Assembly: GCA_021296095.1 (NCBI GenBank)
Contig: JAGWBB010000051.1
Location: 1 to 47,598, forward strand
Source of the DNA: Desulfurellaceae bacterium
GTDB lineage: Bacteria; Desulfobacterota; Binatia; Bin18
Reading direction: 5' to 3'
DNA length: 47,598 bases
In this document: positions 1-6,518 of the stretch, piece after piece
Position numbering within the stretch: the first letter of the stretch is position 1
Layout: every line of letters starts with the position of its first letter
The notes under the pieces: generated by a model
Told to the model about the DNA's origin: nothing
Seen by the model: the letters and a program-made list of their open reading frames with translations, nothing else
Databases searched by the model: none
Program-made: the position numbers and the translations under genes

Positions 1-74
1 TTTGGCTACCGCGAACAGTATAGCTCATCAGGGTAGGCAATTCTCACGGCTTCTCCCTAACTGATGACACGCCC
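1..74. mobile_element. Possible end of an insertion sequence interrupting cas7
   Basis: On the minus strand, cas7 coding sequence runs to a CTAG at 74-77 and then changes to GGGCGTGTCATCAG, followed by in-frame stops. That motif resembles the terminal inverted repeats of some IS5/IS630-like elements, which insert at TA or CTAG targets. I recall the resemblance from the family and have not compared it with a database. Only 74 bases are in the window, so no transposase or second end can be seen. Chance divergence of a decaying cas7 is the alternative. Confidence 0.35.
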
Positions 75-365
75 TAGGAGATCGTCATCAATATGGGTAT
101 TTCCGCCCTTCTTTTTCCATCCTTCAAATTGATGGTCTTGCCATGTGTTTGTCCGTGTATCTTCGTCCCAGCGTCTGTTCGTCTCTTCGACATCCGCCAA
201 GCGGCGACGAAGGGCGAAGCGCACAGCTTCAGCGCTCACCGTCGTATGGACCTGTCCTTGCCACAGCAGCTTCTGAAGAGTGGTGATGTTTCCATCGCTT
301 TCTCCACGGTTGTTCGCGGCGGTTCCGTGATGGGTGATAATAGCGGCAAAAAGATGTTGACTCAT
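57..365 (-). pseudogene. cas7: Cas7 (DevR/Csa2 family), truncated N-terminal fragment
   Basis: This is the backbone subunit of a type I CRISPR interference complex, reduced to its start. Residues 1-34 carry the strongly conserved Cas7/DevR opening (SQHLFAAIITHHGTAANNRG, then DGNITTLQKLL), and HTTVSAEAVRFALR follows. The conserved IDDDLLG near residue 92-98 is the last recognisable part, and a stop comes four codons later. Intact members of the family are around 300 residues, so about two thirds is missing. The start overlaps the end of the cas8a1 C-terminal frame and has its own GGAGG 6 bases upstream of ATG, the usual coupling in this operon. The fragment cannot form a normal RAMP fold, so crRNA surveillance should be lost unless another cas7 exists. 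The break coincides with a possible IS end at 1-74. Confidence 0.75.
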
Positions 366-366
366 A

Positions 367-786
367 TTATTCCTCCACTTCGTCTGTTTCAGTCTCAGTC
401 AGATCAATGTTTTCCTGTTCTTTTCCTTGGTAACTCGCAAGAGCAATTAAGGCTAAATCGCGCGTCAGTTGCCATTTTGTATTGCTCAACAGCGGCAAGA
501 TATGCGGCCAAGATTCCCGTAACACGCTATTGGAACCCGCCCTGCTCCACAGGTCGGCAAGTGCGTGCCTGAGGGCATCGGCAGTCTTCGCGCCGACAAA
601 AGCAAGGCGTTGGCGCTCATACTCGCGAGTCATACGGTTCTTCATTGCAGCTTGCTTCCCTGCATTCTCGGCTGCAATGCGTCCGTACCGACATCGCATA
701 GCCTCATGTACAGCCCGGACGATTACTTCTTCTCCGGGGTGGTCCCAGTGAATTTCTTCGGTCATTGTATGTAGAAGCGGTCTCAA
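367..786 (-). CDS. cas8a1: Cas8a1/Csx13 C-terminal domain (frameshifted from the N-terminal part)
   Basis: The translated frame holds the C-terminal domain of the MYXAN-type large subunit: an HEAMRCRYG segment, KNRMTREYERQRLAF, a DLWSRAGSNSVL helix, and the closing LPLLSNTKWQLTRDLALIALASY typical of Csx13 C-termini. The frame opens at about 818 after a TGA. The TTG at 786 is only a formal start with no good ribosome binding site, so this is best read as the 3' part of the gene that begins at 1942. It lies one frame away from the upstream part and overlaps it by 83 bases. It ends two bases before the cas7 ATG. The two domains are reported as separate genes in some genomes, so a natural split cannot be excluded, but the missing start signal argues for a frameshift. 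Confidence 0.7.
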   Translation of the reverse strand: MRPLLHTMTEEIHWDHPGEEVIVRAVHEAMRCRYGRIAAENAGKQAAMKNRMTREYERQRLAFVGAKTADALRHALADLWSRAGSNSVLRESWPHILPLLSNTKWQLTRDLALIALASYQGKEQENIDLTETETDEVEE

Positions 787-1942
787 AAACCTGTCTGATA
801 AGGTAGAATGGGGGTAAGGTCAAGGACAAGGAGAGGCTGATGGCCGGCCGCGACCAAGGGCGCCCCAAGGCAAGGTTTTCGGCAATAAACGGCCGAGCGT
901 AGCTTTTGGGCCAGAAATACTCGCCTTTCTTGGTTTGCCGCGGCGAAGGGGGCGCGAGAACGGCCATAGCAATCTCGAACTGGTCAAGCGCGATATCCGT
1001 TGCGTCAACGCTTACCTCCGTTACCGCAGAAGGAGGTTGTAGGCGTGAGTTCCAGTCATTTGGGCAACACCAGACACAACGGAGGGCAGAGAGTGTTTCA
1101 AGGTCAAGGAGATTTCTGCTGCGCAATCGAAGTTCCGCTTGAAGGGCGGCATCAGCCACGTTGGAGATTTGGCAGTCCCGCGCGTTCCTGGGGATAATAG
1201 TCGGCAAAAAATACTCTACTTCTAAGAGCGTGTTCAGGTCGGGAATCAGCAGAGCCGCACCGGGTTTGAACCTCCGGGTTCCTCGATCATTGACCTTTTT
1301 CCCTCCAGCCTTCAAAGCCATTGTTCCGACAGGGGCAAACAGCAGTGGAAGGACAAGCTCTGCGCTCTGTGTCACCTGACTTGCAGAATGGGCAGCGTGT
1401 CGCTGAATTGCCCCTGGAAAGAGTGCGCTCGTCAGCCCAATCGGTTCTGTCAGACTGTCAACAATAAGCGCACTTCCATCCTTCCCCTTACCACGTCCTT
1501 GGGTATTCTGATGCTTGTACCACGATAGCGGCAAATACCGGTATGAGACGGGCTTATCGTCAATTTCGTAGGTGCTTTCTATTGCGGTCTCACTCCCCCT
1601 TGAGGTGGGTCCGTGGTCATAGAAGCTTAATAGCAGCCCTTCGTGTAAAGCCGCCCGTACTTCAAGCGGTAGAGAGAGTTCTCCATACTGCCCTGGTAGA
1701 TAGATAAGCCCCTCTTGAATCTGAAAGGCACAGTTGAACAGCCGATCAAAGAATGGCTTAGCTCCTGCTTCTTCCCAACTGAGAGTCACCGAGCGTTCAT
1801 CAATGGTCCATCGCCCAGGCGGGCGCTCCTCATCTGGAAGGCTTTTTTCGATCCAGCGTAGAGTACTGACCAGTCCTCCCAGCCCCGCTCTGTGAAGAGG
1901 GGTCATTCCTGGCGCGAAAAGATCACATGTCAACGATTCCAT
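704..1942 (-). CDS. cas8a1: Cas8a1/Csx13 N-terminal part, type I-MYXAN large subunit
   Basis: This is the large subunit of the Cascade-like complex in the Myxococcus dev-type system (DevT homologue). The start MESLTCDLFAPGMTPLHRAG is the family signature. A ribosome binding site AGAGGAG lies four bases upstream of the ATG, and the start overlaps the end of the cas6::cas3 gene by 13 bases. Similarity to the family persists to YFWPKSYARPFIAENLALG near residues 330-350. The last about 60 residues (from around SLSLTLPPFY) look like out-of-frame translation. The true continuation is in another frame at 367-786. A +1 change between about 784 and 840 would rejoin the two into one protein of about 515 residues, near the normal length. 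It is either a decayed gene or a sequencing error. Confidence 0.75.
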   Translation of the reverse strand: MESLTCDLFAPGMTPLHRAGLGGLVSTLRWIEKSLPDEERPPGRWTIDERSVTLSWEEAGAKPFFDRLFNCAFQIQEGLIYLPGQYGELSLPLEVRAALHEGLLLSFYDHGPTSRGSETAIESTYEIDDKPVSYRYLPLSWYKHQNTQGRGKGKDGSALIVDSLTEPIGLTSALFPGAIQRHAAHSASQVTQSAELVLPLLFAPVGTMALKAGGKKVNDRGTRRFKPGAALLIPDLNTLLEVEYFLPTIIPRNARDCQISNVADAALQAELRLRSRNLLDLETLSALRCVWCCPNDWNSRLQPPSAVTEVSVDATDIALDQFEIAMAVLAPPSPRQTKKGEYFWPKSYARPFIAENLALGRPWSRPAISLSLSLTLPPFYLIRQVFETASTYNDRRNSLGPPRRRSNRPGCT

Positions 1943-3681
1943 CTGGCTCCTCTTTCCGGGTGGTAGTTAATACATTCAGGAGGCGGCACCTTGGCGAACG
2001 CCACTTGAGACCATCTCTTCCAGTCAAGCCAATTCGGTTCTGTCATCGGAATGCGGACCCGGACGGGATCCATTTCCCCGCGTTCTACTGCGAGCGCGTC
2101 TCCCTGGAGCAGGACGGTCAGCCCTGGCGTAGATTCTCTGAGATGACGTGGAGTTGTTTCAAATCCGCCGTCTATCCAGGCGCTTTCCAAGGGTTTTTGC
2201 CGCCCCCCCTCATCCAGTCCACTCCACGTCTGAGCGAGATCGCTTTGAGAGATGGCCCCCATTCCGAGGCGTTCCAGCCATAGACGAGAGGCGGCAAAGG
2301 GGTCCGGTTCGTCTTGGCTTTTATACGGGGCGGGGGTGTCGGGTTCGATGATGAGAAAAGGCTTCGGAGCCTGCGGATTCTTTGGCGTTGAGCGTCGATT
2401 GAGACGGCCTAAGCGCTGTATGAGCGCTGGAACCGGGGCTAAATCCGTCACCAGCAGATCAGCCGAAAGGTCCAGACTCATCTCTGCCACTTGCGTGGCG
2501 ATGGCAAGCACCGGTCCGTCTTGGCGAAAGGCAGAAATAATCCGGCCATGCTGCCGGACGCGGTCTTCGTATCGAAAACGGCTATGGTACACGAGTGGTT
2601 GAAAACCCCGTCCAGAAGCCTCATCGGCAAGGCTGAGCGCACGCCCTACCGTATTCGCGACCCACAAGATTTTCTCGCTGTCTCTGAAGCGCTGCTCTAC
2701 GATACCCCACGGGTCGTCAGTGGCGAGTCTTTGGTAGCGAGGGAGTATTTCCAGGTCTGTCGGACCAGAAACGGTTTCCAAAGATTCACCGATTGAGGAG
2801 AGCGCATCCTTGAGGGCGTTAAGCCGCGATTGTGGCAGGCTTGCTGTCATCAGCAGACATGGCACGCCGCGACAGTTCAAGAGGAAACGGAATAGGCTGG
2901 AGAATAAGCGCTCATCATAGGCATGGATTTCGTCAAAAACGAACGCTGCATTGACGAACGCCGGCCAGGCATACAGCCCCCTGCGTTGGTTCTGTGTCAA
3001 GCCGAGTACGGTGTCTACCGTGCAACTGGTAATAGAGGTAGACCATGCCTCAAGAGCGGCAAGAGGATTGACCTGCTCTCCTTCGTCATCGACTCCAAGT
3101 AACTCCAAGTCCACAGCAGCTCGGCTGTGAACGAGTTGAGTGTTCAATGTTGGGTCAATCAAATAGTCACGAAAACCTTCGGTGGCTGTTCCTGTTGTCG
3201 GGTATGAAAAGAAGAGACGTTTTCCAGGAGCCCTTTGGGATGCCCAGACATACGCCCCGAGTGTCTTTCCGCTACCACACCCGGCTTGAGCAAGGACAAC
3301 CCGTGTCGTTGTCTTTCCGAGTGCTTCTTGGAGAAAGCCCTTGATCGTGACCAGCCGGGCGCGGAGACGAGCGACCGGACGCAGAGCACGGACTTCCGGT
3401 ACCCCGACGCTGAGCGGGTGTTCGTCTACCTCTACCCTTTTCCCGGCCAGCTTCAGATATGCCTGAATCTGTTGGTCTGGAAGACGTAGAATCAGGCGCG
3501 AGAAATCCGCCAAGTGCAGCGCGCCGTTGCCGCTATACATGCCCCGAATGGGCTGCACGCCGATGTCTTTTGCCGTGTGAATGTCCGGCAGAATCCGGCT
3601 CAGCGCGGCGTATAAGGCATAGCCGTGGTCAACCGGAACGACCGATCCAGTCAGGCGAAATGCCAAATCAATCGAATCCAT
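1930..3681 (-). CDS. Cas6-Cas3 in-frame chimera (Cas6 N-half plus Cas3 helicase, no HD domain)
   Basis: Residues 1-116 match the first RAMP half of MYXAN-type Cas6, the crRNA-processing endonuclease (start DSIDLAFRLTG, then VDHGYALYAALSRILP, GVQPIRGMYSG and LRARLVTIKGF). From residue 117 the protein is Cas3 helicase: Walker A GCGSGKT (134-140), motif II DEIH (250-253), motif III TAS (about 279-281), and QRLGRLNRR near 422-430. The second Cas6 half with its glycine-rich loop is missing. The Cas3 HD nuclease domain is also missing, although both belong to the normal genes. The ATG at 3681 has AGGAAAG upstream. The reading frame is intact for 583 residues, so it could be expressed. A deletion between adjacent cas6 and cas3 is the simplest origin. 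Crossing the junction with reads would test an assembly error. Confidence 0.8.
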   Translation of the reverse strand: MDSIDLAFRLTGSVVPVDHGYALYAALSRILPDIHTAKDIGVQPIRGMYSGNGALHLADFSRLILRLPDQQIQAYLKLAGKRVEVDEHPLSVGVPEVRALRPVARLRARLVTIKGFLQEALGKTTTRVVLAQAGCGSGKTLGAYVWASQRAPGKRLFFSYPTTGTATEGFRDYLIDPTLNTQLVHSRAAVDLELLGVDDEGEQVNPLAALEAWSTSITSCTVDTVLGLTQNQRRGLYAWPAFVNAAFVFDEIHAYDERLFSSLFRFLLNCRGVPCLLMTASLPQSRLNALKDALSSIGESLETVSGPTDLEILPRYQRLATDDPWGIVEQRFRDSEKILWVANTVGRALSLADEASGRGFQPLVYHSRFRYEDRVRQHGRIISAFRQDGPVLAIATQVAEMSLDLSADLLVTDLAPVPALIQRLGRLNRRSTPKNPQAPKPFLIIEPDTPAPYKSQDEPDPFAASRLWLERLGMGAISQSDLAQTWSGLDEGGRQKPLESAWIDGGFETTPRHLRESTPGLTVLLQGDALAVERGEMDPVRVRIPMTEPNWLDWKRWSQVAFAKVPPPECINYHPERGARWNR

Positions 3682-3772
3682 ATACTGCTTTCCTTTCCCC
3701 CTCACCCCAGCCCTCTTCCAAGGGAGAGCGAACATAACGGGCATGCTTAGCAGACAGGTGTGACATCCGGGG

Positions 3773-4756
3773 TCACTCGTGCTCAGAAATTTTTCGGGCT
3801 TCTTCCCGAACTTGGTCCCTGAACGACGCCGGGCTGACGACCTGCACCCCGCTGCCAAAGTGCAACACCCAACCGACCAGCTCACGGGTATCCGCAGCGC
3901 GCAGCGACATACGCAGACGGCCATCCTTTTCGAGCGTGGTCTTCTGGCTGGGATGCCACTGGCGGTCTTTGACCCAGGCCGTGGTGGGTTTGTCGAACAA
4001 TAGCTCGATCTCAATCGGCTTGCCGCGCATGACGACCAGGGCGTCTCTGACATAGGCGTCCAGATCGAAATCGAGCGGCATCTGACACGGGCGGTTGGTC
4101 AGCGTCAAGGACCGAATCCGGTCCACTGCAAATATGCGCACATCTTGGCGCAGGTGACAGTGACCGATCAGATACAGCCCGCCGTCTATGTACCGCAGGT
4201 GGTAGGGATCAACCTCGCGGCGGCTGGTCCGGTCGCGCGAGGCCGTGTAGTAGCGCATCTGCACGGTGCGGGTCTGGGCAATAGCCTGGGACAGCTGGTC
4301 TATGGTCTGCCGGTGCTGACTGTAGCGCTTGTGGGCGCCCACACCGACCGAAAAATGGCCGCGTAGCTGTTCGATATAGCGTGTCCCCTCAGCCGGCAAC
4401 GCGGCCGCAGCCTTGTTCAAAGCCGAGTCGAGCGACGCCTTGAGTTCGGTTCCGTCCAGAGGCTTGAGCAAGTCCCGGCTGAAGACCAGGGCCATGAGTT
4501 CGGTTGGCGAGAGGGTCAACGGCAGGGCCTGACGATAGCCGTCCATCAGACGCCAGCGCGTCCGACCGTTGCCGCGCTCCGCTATCAGAGGAATATGGGC
4601 GGCCTCCAGGGCTTCGAGGTCGCGCCGAATCGTCCGGGGATGGCGCGACAAGTCTTCTGGCAGAGACGCGGCCAACTCTTGGAGGGTCGCTCCTCGGGAG
4701 TGCTCCAGCTTCTGCAACAGCAACCACTGACGGGTGACCTGATCGTTACGCGGCAC
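3773..4756 (-). CDS. WYL-domain transcriptional regulator (DeoR-type HTH)
   Basis: This is a ligand-sensing DNA-binding protein. An N-terminal winged helix (residues about 5-60, with RHPRTIRRDLEALE as recognition region) is followed by a WYL domain. In that domain the core reads VQMRYYTASRDRTSRREVDPYHLRYIDGGLYLIGHC, given here as YYTAS, VDPYHLRYIDGGLYLIGHC. A WCX-type C-terminal extension follows. I chose GTG at 4756 because GAGGGAG sits six bases upstream; a TTG at 4777 is the in-frame alternative. WYL proteins are frequent next to CRISPR-Cas loci and phage-defence islands, where they act as repressors or activators. This gene directly precedes the cas genes on the same strand with a 91-base gap. 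Its base composition is like the chromosome to its right rather than the cas genes to its left. Confidence 0.85.
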   Translation of the reverse strand: MPRNDQVTRQWLLLQKLEHSRGATLQELAASLPEDLSRHPRTIRRDLEALEAAHIPLIAERGNGRTRWRLMDGYRQALPLTLSPTELMALVFSRDLLKPLDGTELKASLDSALNKAAAALPAEGTRYIEQLRGHFSVGVGAHKRYSQHRQTIDQLSQAIAQTRTVQMRYYTASRDRTSRREVDPYHLRYIDGGLYLIGHCHLRQDVRIFAVDRIRSLTLTNRPCQMPLDFDLDAYVRDALVVMRGKPIEIELLFDKPTTAWVKDRQWHPSQKTTLEKDGRLRMSLRAADTRELVGWVLHFGSGVQVVSPASFRDQVREEARKISEHE

Positions 4757-4839
4757 CTTCTTCTCCCTCAGTCTCAACAGGGGATGTCAGAGAACGATTT
4801 TCTCTGAAGGCCATAAATTTTCTGAGAAGCTGCCCCCGT

Positions 4840-6420
4840 CTACCCCCCCAGCTTGCGCCTGAGCAGCCGCCACAGTGCCCACACTTCTTCGACCTTGAAC
4901 ACAAAGCCCAGCATGAGGTACAGCCCGCTCCCGGCTGCGACGATGGCGGCCAGCTGCGTGAGGTAGAGCGGCGTCATCAGCGAGCCCGGCACGTCGGCCA
5001 GCGGCTGACTCAAGCCAAACACACACCCGCCCAGGGCTGCGGCCAGCAGGAAATGGGTGGCGAACTGACGGGCCAGCAGCGCTTCGTTCAGCGGCCCGCG
5101 ACGGCGACGGAAAATGGCGTACAGGATCAGCGTGTTCAGGCCCGAGGCGAGCGAGATCATCAACGCAATGCCCCAGTGACCCCACACCTGCATCAGCAGC
5201 CAGCCACCAAGCGCGTTGAGGCCGACCGAGACCAGACCGACCACGGCCGGAGTACGGGTATCCTTAGTCGCGTTGAACAGCCGGACCATGACCTGACTGC
5301 TGCCGTAGGCCACGATCCCGACGCCGTAGGCCATCAGCGCCTGGCTGGTCAGCACGACATCCTCGGGCGTGAACTGACCCCGCTGGTACAGCAGACGCGT
5401 GATCGGCATGGCCAGGCCGACCACAAGAGCCGTGGCCGGCAGGCCGACCGCAAACAGCAGGGACAGACCCGCGGCGGCCTTGTCCTTGAACTCCCGCTCG
5501 GCCCCGTCGGCCTGATGGGCGGCGGACAGGTCGGTCAGCAGCACGGTATACACCGGGACGGCGAACAGACTCACCGGCAGCAGGAAGATGCGGAAGGCAT
5601 AGGCCAGGGCCGAGATGCTGCCCTCGGCCAGAGTCGAGGCCAGTGCGCGGGCAACAAAGGCGTTGATCGGCACCACCGCAGTCGCAATGAACGCGCCCAG
5701 CACCAGTCCGCCCATCTCGCGCAGGGCCGGATGACGAAAGGCGAAGCTGGGTCGGTAGCGAATCCCGGCTCGGGCCAGAGCCGGGATCTGTACCAGCAGT
5801 TGGACCAGGCTGCCGGCCACCACCCCGATGGCCAGGCTGCGAATGCCGTAGGCCCCGGCCAAGCTCAGGGCACACGCGATCATCACCAGATTGAAGAATA
5901 CCCCGGCATACTCGGGCATGGCGTAGTGGTCCAGGCTGTTCAGCGTGCCCTTGATCACAGCCAGCAGACAGTGCACGACCAGCATCGGCAGCATCAGACG
6001 GAACAGGAAGACCGCCAGGTCGTGATCGTCTCCGCCCAGGCCGGGAGCGGCGACGGTCAGAATGGCCGGGGCGGCCACATAACACACCCCGGCCAGCACC
6101 AGGGCGATGCCAAAGGCGGCGTCCAGGGACAGGCTGAAGACCCGGTTCAGCTCGGCCGCACGGTTTCGGTAGCGGGTAATGACCGGCACAAAGAAATTGC
6201 TCAGCACGCCGCTGAAAAACAGGGTCTGGATCATTTCCGGCACGTTATAGGCAACCAGAAAGGCGTCGGTCAGCCGTGAGGCGCCGAACAGGGCAGCCTG
6301 GACAGCCTCACGCACAAAACCCAGCGGCCGGCTCAGCAGGGTGGCGATGACGATCGGGCGGCCCTTGCGGACCAGACCGGAACGGGACGACGGGGGAACA
6401 GGTGAGGCGGGGGGCGACAC
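4840..6420 (-). CDS. murJ: MurJ/MviN lipid II flippase
   Basis: This polytopic inner-membrane protein moves lipid II across the membrane for peptidoglycan synthesis. At 526 residues it has the usual length, and it shows about 14 hydrophobic segments. N-terminal family motifs are seen: LSRPLGFVREAVQAALFGAS followed by TDAFLVAYNVPEMIQTLF and GVLSNFFVPV. The start is GTG at 6420 without a convincing ribosome binding site; an internal start near the first membrane segment is possible. The gene stands alone on the minus strand between the CRISPR regulator and the oxidoreductase block, behind a repeat-rich spacer. Confidence 0.95.
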   Translation of the reverse strand: MSPPASPVPPSSRSGLVRKGRPIVIATLLSRPLGFVREAVQAALFGASRLTDAFLVAYNVPEMIQTLFFSGVLSNFFVPVITRYRNRAAELNRVFSLSLDAAFGIALVLAGVCYVAAPAILTVAAPGLGGDDHDLAVFLFRLMLPMLVVHCLLAVIKGTLNSLDHYAMPEYAGVFFNLVMIACALSLAGAYGIRSLAIGVVAGSLVQLLVQIPALARAGIRYRPSFAFRHPALREMGGLVLGAFIATAVVPINAFVARALASTLAEGSISALAYAFRIFLLPVSLFAVPVYTVLLTDLSAAHQADGAEREFKDKAAAGLSLLFAVGLPATALVVGLAMPITRLLYQRGQFTPEDVVLTSQALMAYGVGIVAYGSSQVMVRLFNATKDTRTPAVVGLVSVGLNALGGWLLMQVWGHWGIALMISLASGLNTLILYAIFRRRRGPLNEALLARQFATHFLLAAALGGCVFGLSQPLADVPGSLMTPLYLTQLAAIVAAGSGLYLMLGFVFKVEEVWALWRLLRRKLGG

Positions 6421-6470
6421 GCCGGCACTGTAGCAAGGAAGCGCGGCAAGATCAGCCAGACCTCAGCGGT

Positions 6471-6495
6471 AGGGGCGGGTTTGAAACCCGCCCCT
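6471..6495. repeat. 25-bp near-perfect palindrome, copy 1
   Basis: Arms AGGGGCGGGTTT and AAACCCGCCCCT surround a single central base. A second copy lies at 34787-34811 and differs only at the centre. Both copies are intergenic. It looks like a dispersed REP-type element; no transposase is linked to it. Confidence 0.7.
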
Positions 6496-6518
6496 GCGAG
6501 ACTCCTCGCCCCCTCCAG

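What the first reader, a model, noticed from the sequence alone, without database searches (positions are those of the whole stretch)
3300..3370. In-frame Cas6-Cas3 chimera lacking the Cas6 C-half and the Cas3 HD nuclease
Residues 1-116 read as the first half of MYXAN-type Cas6 and end in VTIKGF. The next residues, LQEALGKTTTRVVLAQ, are the approach to the Cas3 Walker A. The frame is open for 583 codons. If real, it is either a clean deletion between neighbouring genes or a new architecture linking a crRNA-binding RAMP half with a helicase without nuclease.
Basis: partly seen in the sequence, partly recalled or inferred. Interest (0 to 1): 0.72.

Follow-up and report, generated by a model that had tools for sequence, protein, structure and literature searches.

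The report
Decayed CRISPR locus with gene-fusing deletion
A bacterial CRISPR defence operon that is falling apart has lost about 1,060 bases between two neighbouring genes, which happened to join the front half of one (cas6) in frame to the back half of the next (cas3); it is most likely a dead remnant rather than a new kind of enzyme.

Summary
Window 1933-3681 (-) encodes one open 583-aa frame. Residues 1-117 are the N-half of a MYXAN (type I-B) Cas6 and residues 118-583 are the Cas3 helicase; the junction is at 3330/3331.

The closest relative, G012/L036 (86% DNA identity), keeps separate, complete cas6 (204 aa) and cas3 (743 aa, with HD), followed by cas8a1-cas7-cas5-cas4/1-cas2. Against it the window lacks exactly 1,060 bp (2 nt shared at the breakpoints). 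The joined frame is the one-in-three outcome.

Of 39 relatives with both genes readable, 38 keep them in separate frames. One (L089) merges full-length genes through an apparent frame slip near the cas6 end. None has half-Cas6 plus HD-less Cas3.

The operon is broken elsewhere too. cas8a1 is split, whereas it is one frame in 26 of 26 testable relatives. cas7 stops after about 98 codons at the end of an IS4/IS5-type element, which also ends the contig. The deleted segment, cas5, cas4/1, any cas1 and a matching CRISPR array were not found in this 97%-complete genome.

Best reading: a decaying type I-B locus with a fortuitous in-frame deletion; a functional half-RAMP helicase is unlikely. Without reads, an assembly or strain chimera is not formally excluded.

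The parts
1933..3681 (-). 583-aa open frame: Cas6 (Cmx6) N-half joined to the Cas3 helicase (stop codon at 1930-1932)
   Evidence: TIGR02807 1.3e-35 and TIGR01587 1.3e-41 in one protein; Pfam Cas6, DEAD, Cas3-like_C_2, no HD
3331..3681 (-). Cas6-derived part, residues 1-117: first RRM-like domain with the invariant His18-type position, plus the residues of the first strand of the second RRM-like domain; G-rich loop missing
   Evidence: alignment with 24 complete Cas6; AlphaFold of intact Cas6 and of the fusion
1933..3330 (-). Cas3-derived part, residues 118-583: complete helicase from just before motif Q/Walker A; HD nuclease (about 270 aa) missing
   Evidence: 89.5% aa identity to G012 Cas3 residues 276-743; motifs located
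3330..3331 (-). deletion junction: 1,060 bp missing relative to L036 (between L036 4405 and 5466); 2 nt exactly shared (TC), 6 of 7 imperfect
704..1942 (-). cas8a1 N part (csx13_N, 412 aa); frame broken before the C-terminal domain
   Evidence: TIGR03485 1.7e-41; one frame with the C part in 26 of 26 testable relatives
367..786 (-). cas8a1 C part (csx13_C, Cas11-like region) in another frame
   Evidence: TIGR03486 1.9e-31; 96% aa identity to the G012 C part
78..365 (-). cas7 (DevR/Cst2), first ~98 of ~296 codons only
   Evidence: TIGR01875 / TIGR02585 profile 1-100; 91% identity to G012 Cas7 residues 2-99
1..77 (-). end of a repeated insertion element (IS4/IS5-type) inserted in cas7 at a CTAG target; also the contig end
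   Evidence: same sequence at 12 places in G000, often at contig ends; relative in G007 encodes DUF4096 + DDE_Tnp_1 transposase
3773..4777 (-). WYL/WCX-domain transcription regulator upstream of cas6, conserved at the same place in G012 (82% DNA)
   Evidence: PF13280 2.1e-23, PF25583 1e-18

Best explanation
This is a type I-B (MYXAN-type) CRISPR-Cas operon in decay. A single ~1,060-bp deletion, with little microhomology, removed the 3' end of cas6 (most of its second RRM-like domain and the glycine-rich loop) and the 5' part of cas3 (the HD nuclease), and by the one-in-three chance left the two remnants in frame. The same operon has a broken cas8a1 frame and an IS4/IS5-type element in cas7, and cas5, cas4/1, cas2 and a CRISPR array were not found. 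Inferred consequence: no crRNA processing, no Cascade and no target cleavage; if the 583-aa protein is made at all it is at most an orphan helicase with a useless RRM-like cap. Shown: the deletion relative to the relative, the co-occurring lesions, the intact relatives. Inferred: that the deletion is in the living cells and that the product has no function.
For: Closest relative G012/L036 has cas6 (204 aa), cas3 (743 aa with HD), cas8a1 (513), cas7 (296), cas5, cas4/1, cas2 in order. DNA alignment is colinear on both sides of one precise gap: 84% identity on the cas6 side, 86% on the cas3 side. The deleted segment is nowhere in G000 at DNA or protein level. cas4/1 gives no protein match and cas1 no family match in G000, while the same family search rings in G001, G012 and 9 controls. 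The CRISPR repeat of the relatives occurs more than 20 times in G477 but only once, degenerate and isolated in front of an oxidoreductase gene, in G000. The cas8a1 split is unique against 26 relatives. The contig begins in an IS end inserted at CTAG in cas7. 38 of 39 relatives with both genes keep cas6 and cas3 in separate frames, all with HD. Window-branch helicase changes are 31 nonsynonymous to 39 synonymous against 16 to 52 on the G012 branch, p=0.012, weakly pointing to relaxed constraint.
Against: The 583-codon frame has no stop, helicase motifs are intact, and both parts still look conserved overall (dN/dS window-G012 0.09 for the Cas6 part, 0.13 for the helicase), so if it is a pseudogene the loss is recent. 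No reads were available. Missing cas5/cas1/cas2/array could lie in unassembled DNA beyond the IS at the contig end. The cas8 break could be a sequencing error or a real split of Cas8 and Cas11.
Confidence: 0.85

Rival explanations
1. Assembly or strain chimera: the cells carry intact cas6 and cas3 and the assembler (or a library chimera) joined the two wrongly.
For: The genome is a fragmented draft (185 contigs, contamination estimate 3.46%) and no reads were available. The cas8 break would also fit error-prone sequence.
Against: The breakpoints share only 2 nt exactly, too little for a k-mer assembler to jump; the missing 1,060 bp are absent from the whole assembly, whereas a misjoin usually leaves the skipped piece as its own contig; flanks are colinear with the relative; independent lesions in cas7 and cas8 fit decay.
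Confidence: 0.1
2. New functional architecture: a half RAMP (first RRM-like domain of Cas6) tethers a nuclease-free Cas3 helicase to crRNA or Cascade, giving binding/unwinding without cutting.
For: In-frame, complete helicase motifs, no stops; the RRM-like half is predicted to fold by itself (pLDDT 90-96 over residues 1-100).
Against: Found in one genome only; no intact Cascade partner is left in the genome as assembled (cas7 cut, cas8 split, no cas5) and no array was found; the strand 104-110 of the second RRM is kept but no longer forms, junction pLDDT 31-53.
Confidence: 0.03
3. Partial function retained: the helicase part survives as an orphan repair or unwinding enzyme that merely uses the cas6 start and ribosome site.
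For: Overall dN/dS of the helicase between window and G012 is 0.13 and motifs are intact.
Against: Pairwise dN/dS mostly reflects the time before the deletion; the window branch shows relatively more amino-acid changes (31:39 against 16:52).
Confidence: 0.05

Closest known systems
Type I-B (former MYXAN; Cas6/Cmx6, Cas8a1/Cmx1) CRISPR-Cas operons, e.g. G012/L036 (contig JAJDZM010000168.1, Candidatus Binatia MAG) and L077 (Nitrospirales MAG)
   Same: Same gene order WYL-(...)-cas6-cas3-cas8a1-cas7 in G012; 84-86% DNA identity; protein families match.
   Different: Window lacks the cas6 3' part, the cas3 HD region, an intact cas8a1, the rest of cas7; cas5, cas4/1, cas2 and the array were not found.
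Decayed CRISPR-Cas loci disrupted by deletions and insertion sequences
   Same: Several independent lesions in one operon, an IS insertion, no adaptation genes and no array found.
   Different: Here one deletion happened to leave a long in-frame chimera.
HD-less Cas3 helicase (Cas3') and stand-alone HD (Cas3'') arrangements of other type I systems
   Same: A Cas3 helicase without a fused HD domain.
   Different: In those systems HD is encoded elsewhere; here no HD segment was found in the genome, and the N-terminal extension is a truncated Cas6.
L089 (Gemmatales KatS3mg105) cas6-cas3 merged frame
   Same: cas6 and cas3 read as one open frame (981 codons).
   Different: Both proteins are full length with HD; the merge comes from an apparent frame slip in the glycine-rich end of cas6, not from a deletion.

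Membership tests
Functional Cas6 endoribonuclease (Cmx6, TIGR02807) | First RRM-like domain with conserved histidine after strand 1 | tested here: met
   Invariant His18 column of 25 aligned sequences is kept; domain predicted with pLDDT above 90
Functional Cas6 endoribonuclease (Cmx6, TIGR02807) | Second RRM-like domain and glycine-rich loop near the C-terminus (defined in PMC3150331) | tested here: not met
   Alignment ends at VTIKGFL; GLGGRRxMGCGxF motif and the preceding strands/helix absent; no other cas6 found in G000
Functional Cas3 (helicase-nuclease of type I) | SF2 helicase motifs | tested here: met
   GCGSGKT, DEIH, TASLP, QRLGRLNR present; TIGR01587 1.3e-41
Functional Cas3 (helicase-nuclease of type I) | HD nuclease domain, fused or in trans | tested here: not met
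   No HD hit in the 583-aa protein; G012 HD segment finds nothing in G000
Functional type I-B CRISPR-Cas system | Intact Cascade genes cas8, cas7, cas5 | tested here: not met
   cas8a1 split, cas7 cut at ~98 codons by an IS end, no cas5 DNA match; the part beyond the contig end may be unassembled
Functional type I-B CRISPR-Cas system | Adaptation genes and CRISPR array | tested here: not met
   No cas1 in G000; no array with the relatives' repeat, only one degenerate copy
Functional type I-B CRISPR-Cas system | crRNA processing and interference activity | not testable with these tools
   needs expression and plasmid-interference assay

The most novel reading that the evidence does not exclude
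The fused protein is expressed and selected as a nuclease-free, RNA-binding Cas3 helicase that works without the rest of Cascade.
Probability: 0.02. Interest if true: 0.7.

Novelty: new member of a known kind. Interest (0 to 1): 0.12.

Why it matters
It is mainly a caution for annotation and domain-fusion mining: a good-looking, long in-frame chimera with two significant domain hits can come from one chance deletion in a dying operon. It also gives a clear snapshot of step-wise CRISPR loss (deletion, frame break, IS insertion) with an intact relative available for comparison. If the fusion did turn out to be functional it would be a new crRNA-binding/helicase design, but nothing here supports that.

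Tried and rejected
Sought the same fusion elsewhere: the 23-base junction in the genome collection (0 matches), the fusion protein in genome and viral contigs, the Cas6 family in 16 order-level and 395 phylum-level genomes: no half-Cas6/helicase fusion. Considered L089 as an independent natural fusion; its merged frame runs through a garbled cas6 C-terminus that becomes normal one frame over, so it reads as a frame slip. Considered that the cas8a1 split is the normal state (separate models TIGR03485/03486; Cas11 from an internal start in type I-B, PMC11096372): in all 26 testable relatives it is one frame. Considered a second cas6/cas3 copy in the genome that would make the fusion dispensable: none found. 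The isolated repeat-like site in G000 (C43) is not an array. The C78 match to the relative's cas5-cas4/1 interval was looked at for continuation of the locus; the contig turns to an ABC-transporter gene, so it is not the missing half. Structure of the fusion: the low confidence of residues 130-215 may come from the shallow mixed alignment and is not used as evidence. Paper searches found no 'Cas6-Cas3 fusion'.

Full report
What is there. The window is the whole of contig C51 of a 4.32-Mb draft genome (185 contigs, 96.9% complete). On the minus strand, 1933-3681 is one open frame of 583 codons from an ATG. Residues 2-142 match the MYXAN Cas6 model TIGR02807 (E 1.3e-35; profile 2-142 of 197) and residues 129-434 the Cas3 helicase core TIGR01587 (E 1.3e-41). 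Pfam agrees (Cas6 1-117 of 191; DEAD; Cas3-like_C_2) and gives no HD hit.

Where it came from. The most similar locus found is G012 contig C193 (L036; the genome collection names it JAJDZM010000168.1, a Candidatus Binatia MAG). It carries a WYL regulator, two small minus-strand genes, cas6 (204 aa), cas3 (743 aa with Cas3_HD), cas8a1 (513 aa), cas7, cas5, cas4/1 and cas2. DNA alignment is colinear on both sides of the junction: 84% identity over cas6 up to ...GG(C/T)TTTCTC and 86% from CAAGAAGC... in cas3 onward. Exactly 1,060 bp of L036 (4406-5465) are missing in the window. The exact overlap at the breakpoints is 2 nt (TC), or 6 of 7 nt imperfectly (TCAAAGA against TCCAAGA). This is what an illegitimate deletion looks like, and one in three such deletions keeps the frame.

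What was lost. Aligned with 24 complete Cas6 proteins, the window keeps the first RRM-like domain with the invariant histidine and loses the conserved RRT, VGF and GLGGRRxMGCGxF elements. AlphaFold of the intact G012 Cas6 (pLDDT 94) shows that the cut falls right after the first strand (104-110) of the second RRM-like domain. In a model of the fusion the first domain is still confident, but that strand no longer forms and the junction is at pLDDT 31-53. Cas6 proteins as a rule have two RRM domains with a glycine-rich loop before the last strand (PMC3150331). The HD nuclease of Cas3 is gone, and no HD segment is found elsewhere in the genome.

The rest of the operon is broken too. cas8a1 is split into csx13_N (412 aa) and csx13_C (139 aa) in different frames with an unalignable ~90-nt stretch between them; in 26 of 26 testable relatives they are one frame. 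cas7 follows the relative for about 98 codons and then runs into CTAGGGCGTGTCATCAGTTAGGG..., a sequence found at 12 places in the same genome, often at contig ends. A ~0.87-kb copy of a related element in G007 has matching inverted ends and two ORFs hitting DUF4096 and DDE_Tnp_1 (IS4/5 transposase), and the G000 copies abut CTAG. So an IS4/IS5-type element sits in cas7 and ends the contig. Searching the genome with the whole 11-kb relative locus finds only the pieces in C51 plus unrelated short repeats; cas5, cas4/1 and cas2 are not found. cas1 is absent by protein and by family model, while the same family search rings in G001, G012 and nine control genomes. The CRISPR repeat that occurs more than 20 times in the genome of L077 and at the end of L036 occurs in G000 once, with three mismatches, isolated before an oxidoreductase gene.

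Is the fusion found elsewhere? The Cas6 family was searched in 395 genomes of the phylum and in the order, and the fusion protein in genome and viral collections. Of 39 distinct loci where both genes could be read, 38 have cas6 and cas3 in separate frames, and every one of the 39 has HD and helicase in the same frame. The single exception, L089, reads complete cas6 into complete cas3 over 981 codons, apparently through a frame slip in the last ~25 codons of cas6. The junction sequence itself occurs in no other genome of the collection.

Selection. Between window and G012 both parts look conserved (dN/dS 0.09 and 0.13), but that mostly reflects time before the deletion. With L077 as outgroup the helicase has 31 nonsynonymous to 39 synonymous changes on the window branch against 16 to 52 on the G012 branch (Fisher p=0.012). 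This suggests some relaxation, though counts are small and G012 and L077 are not close. Together with intact motifs and no stops it points to a recent loss.

How it most likely works. It most likely does not work: without the second half of Cas6, HD, an intact Cas8 and Cas7, Cas5 and an array, neither crRNA processing nor interference is expected. This last step is inference. What cannot be settled here is whether reads support the join; the assembly context argues for a real deletion (almost no shared sequence at the breakpoints; the missing piece is absent from the assembly), but a chimera is not formally excluded. Confidence in 'decaying type I-B locus with a fortuitous in-frame deletion' is 0.85.

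Noticed in passing
L089:4471-7413 (Gemmatales bacterium KatS3mg105): Full-length cas6 and cas3 (with HD) share one 981-codon open frame; the cas6 C-terminal glycine-rich motif is garbled and reads normally one frame over, so a one-base slip (real or sequencing) is likely.
   Followed up: partly
L036:3072-3985 against window 3749-3804: In G012 two small minus-strand genes of unknown family (113 and 168 aa) sit between the WYL gene and cas6, flanked by two copies of the ~50-bp 3' end of the WYL gene; the window has one copy and no insert.
   Followed up: partly
L104:2096-2818 and 5856-6500: A MYXAN-type locus (Planctomycetales MAG) with two cas6-like genes, one before cas3 and one between cas3 and cas8.
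   Followed up: no
L059 (G474:C175): Another apparently decayed relative: cas6 frame of 166 aa ending at profile position 145, then an HD-only frame of 194 aa, no helicase in the 3.3 kb seen, cas7 fragment following.
   Followed up: no
window about 1255-1557 (middle of cas8a1): The middle of cas8a1 in the window is closer to the Nitrospirales locus L077 than to G012, although the flanking genes are closer to G012; possible recombination in cas8a1.
   Followed up: partly
window 1-77; G000 C1, C3, C16, C39, C44, C49, C53 ends: Many contigs of this genome end in the same IS4/IS5-type element, which explains part of the fragmentation of the assembly.
   Followed up: partly
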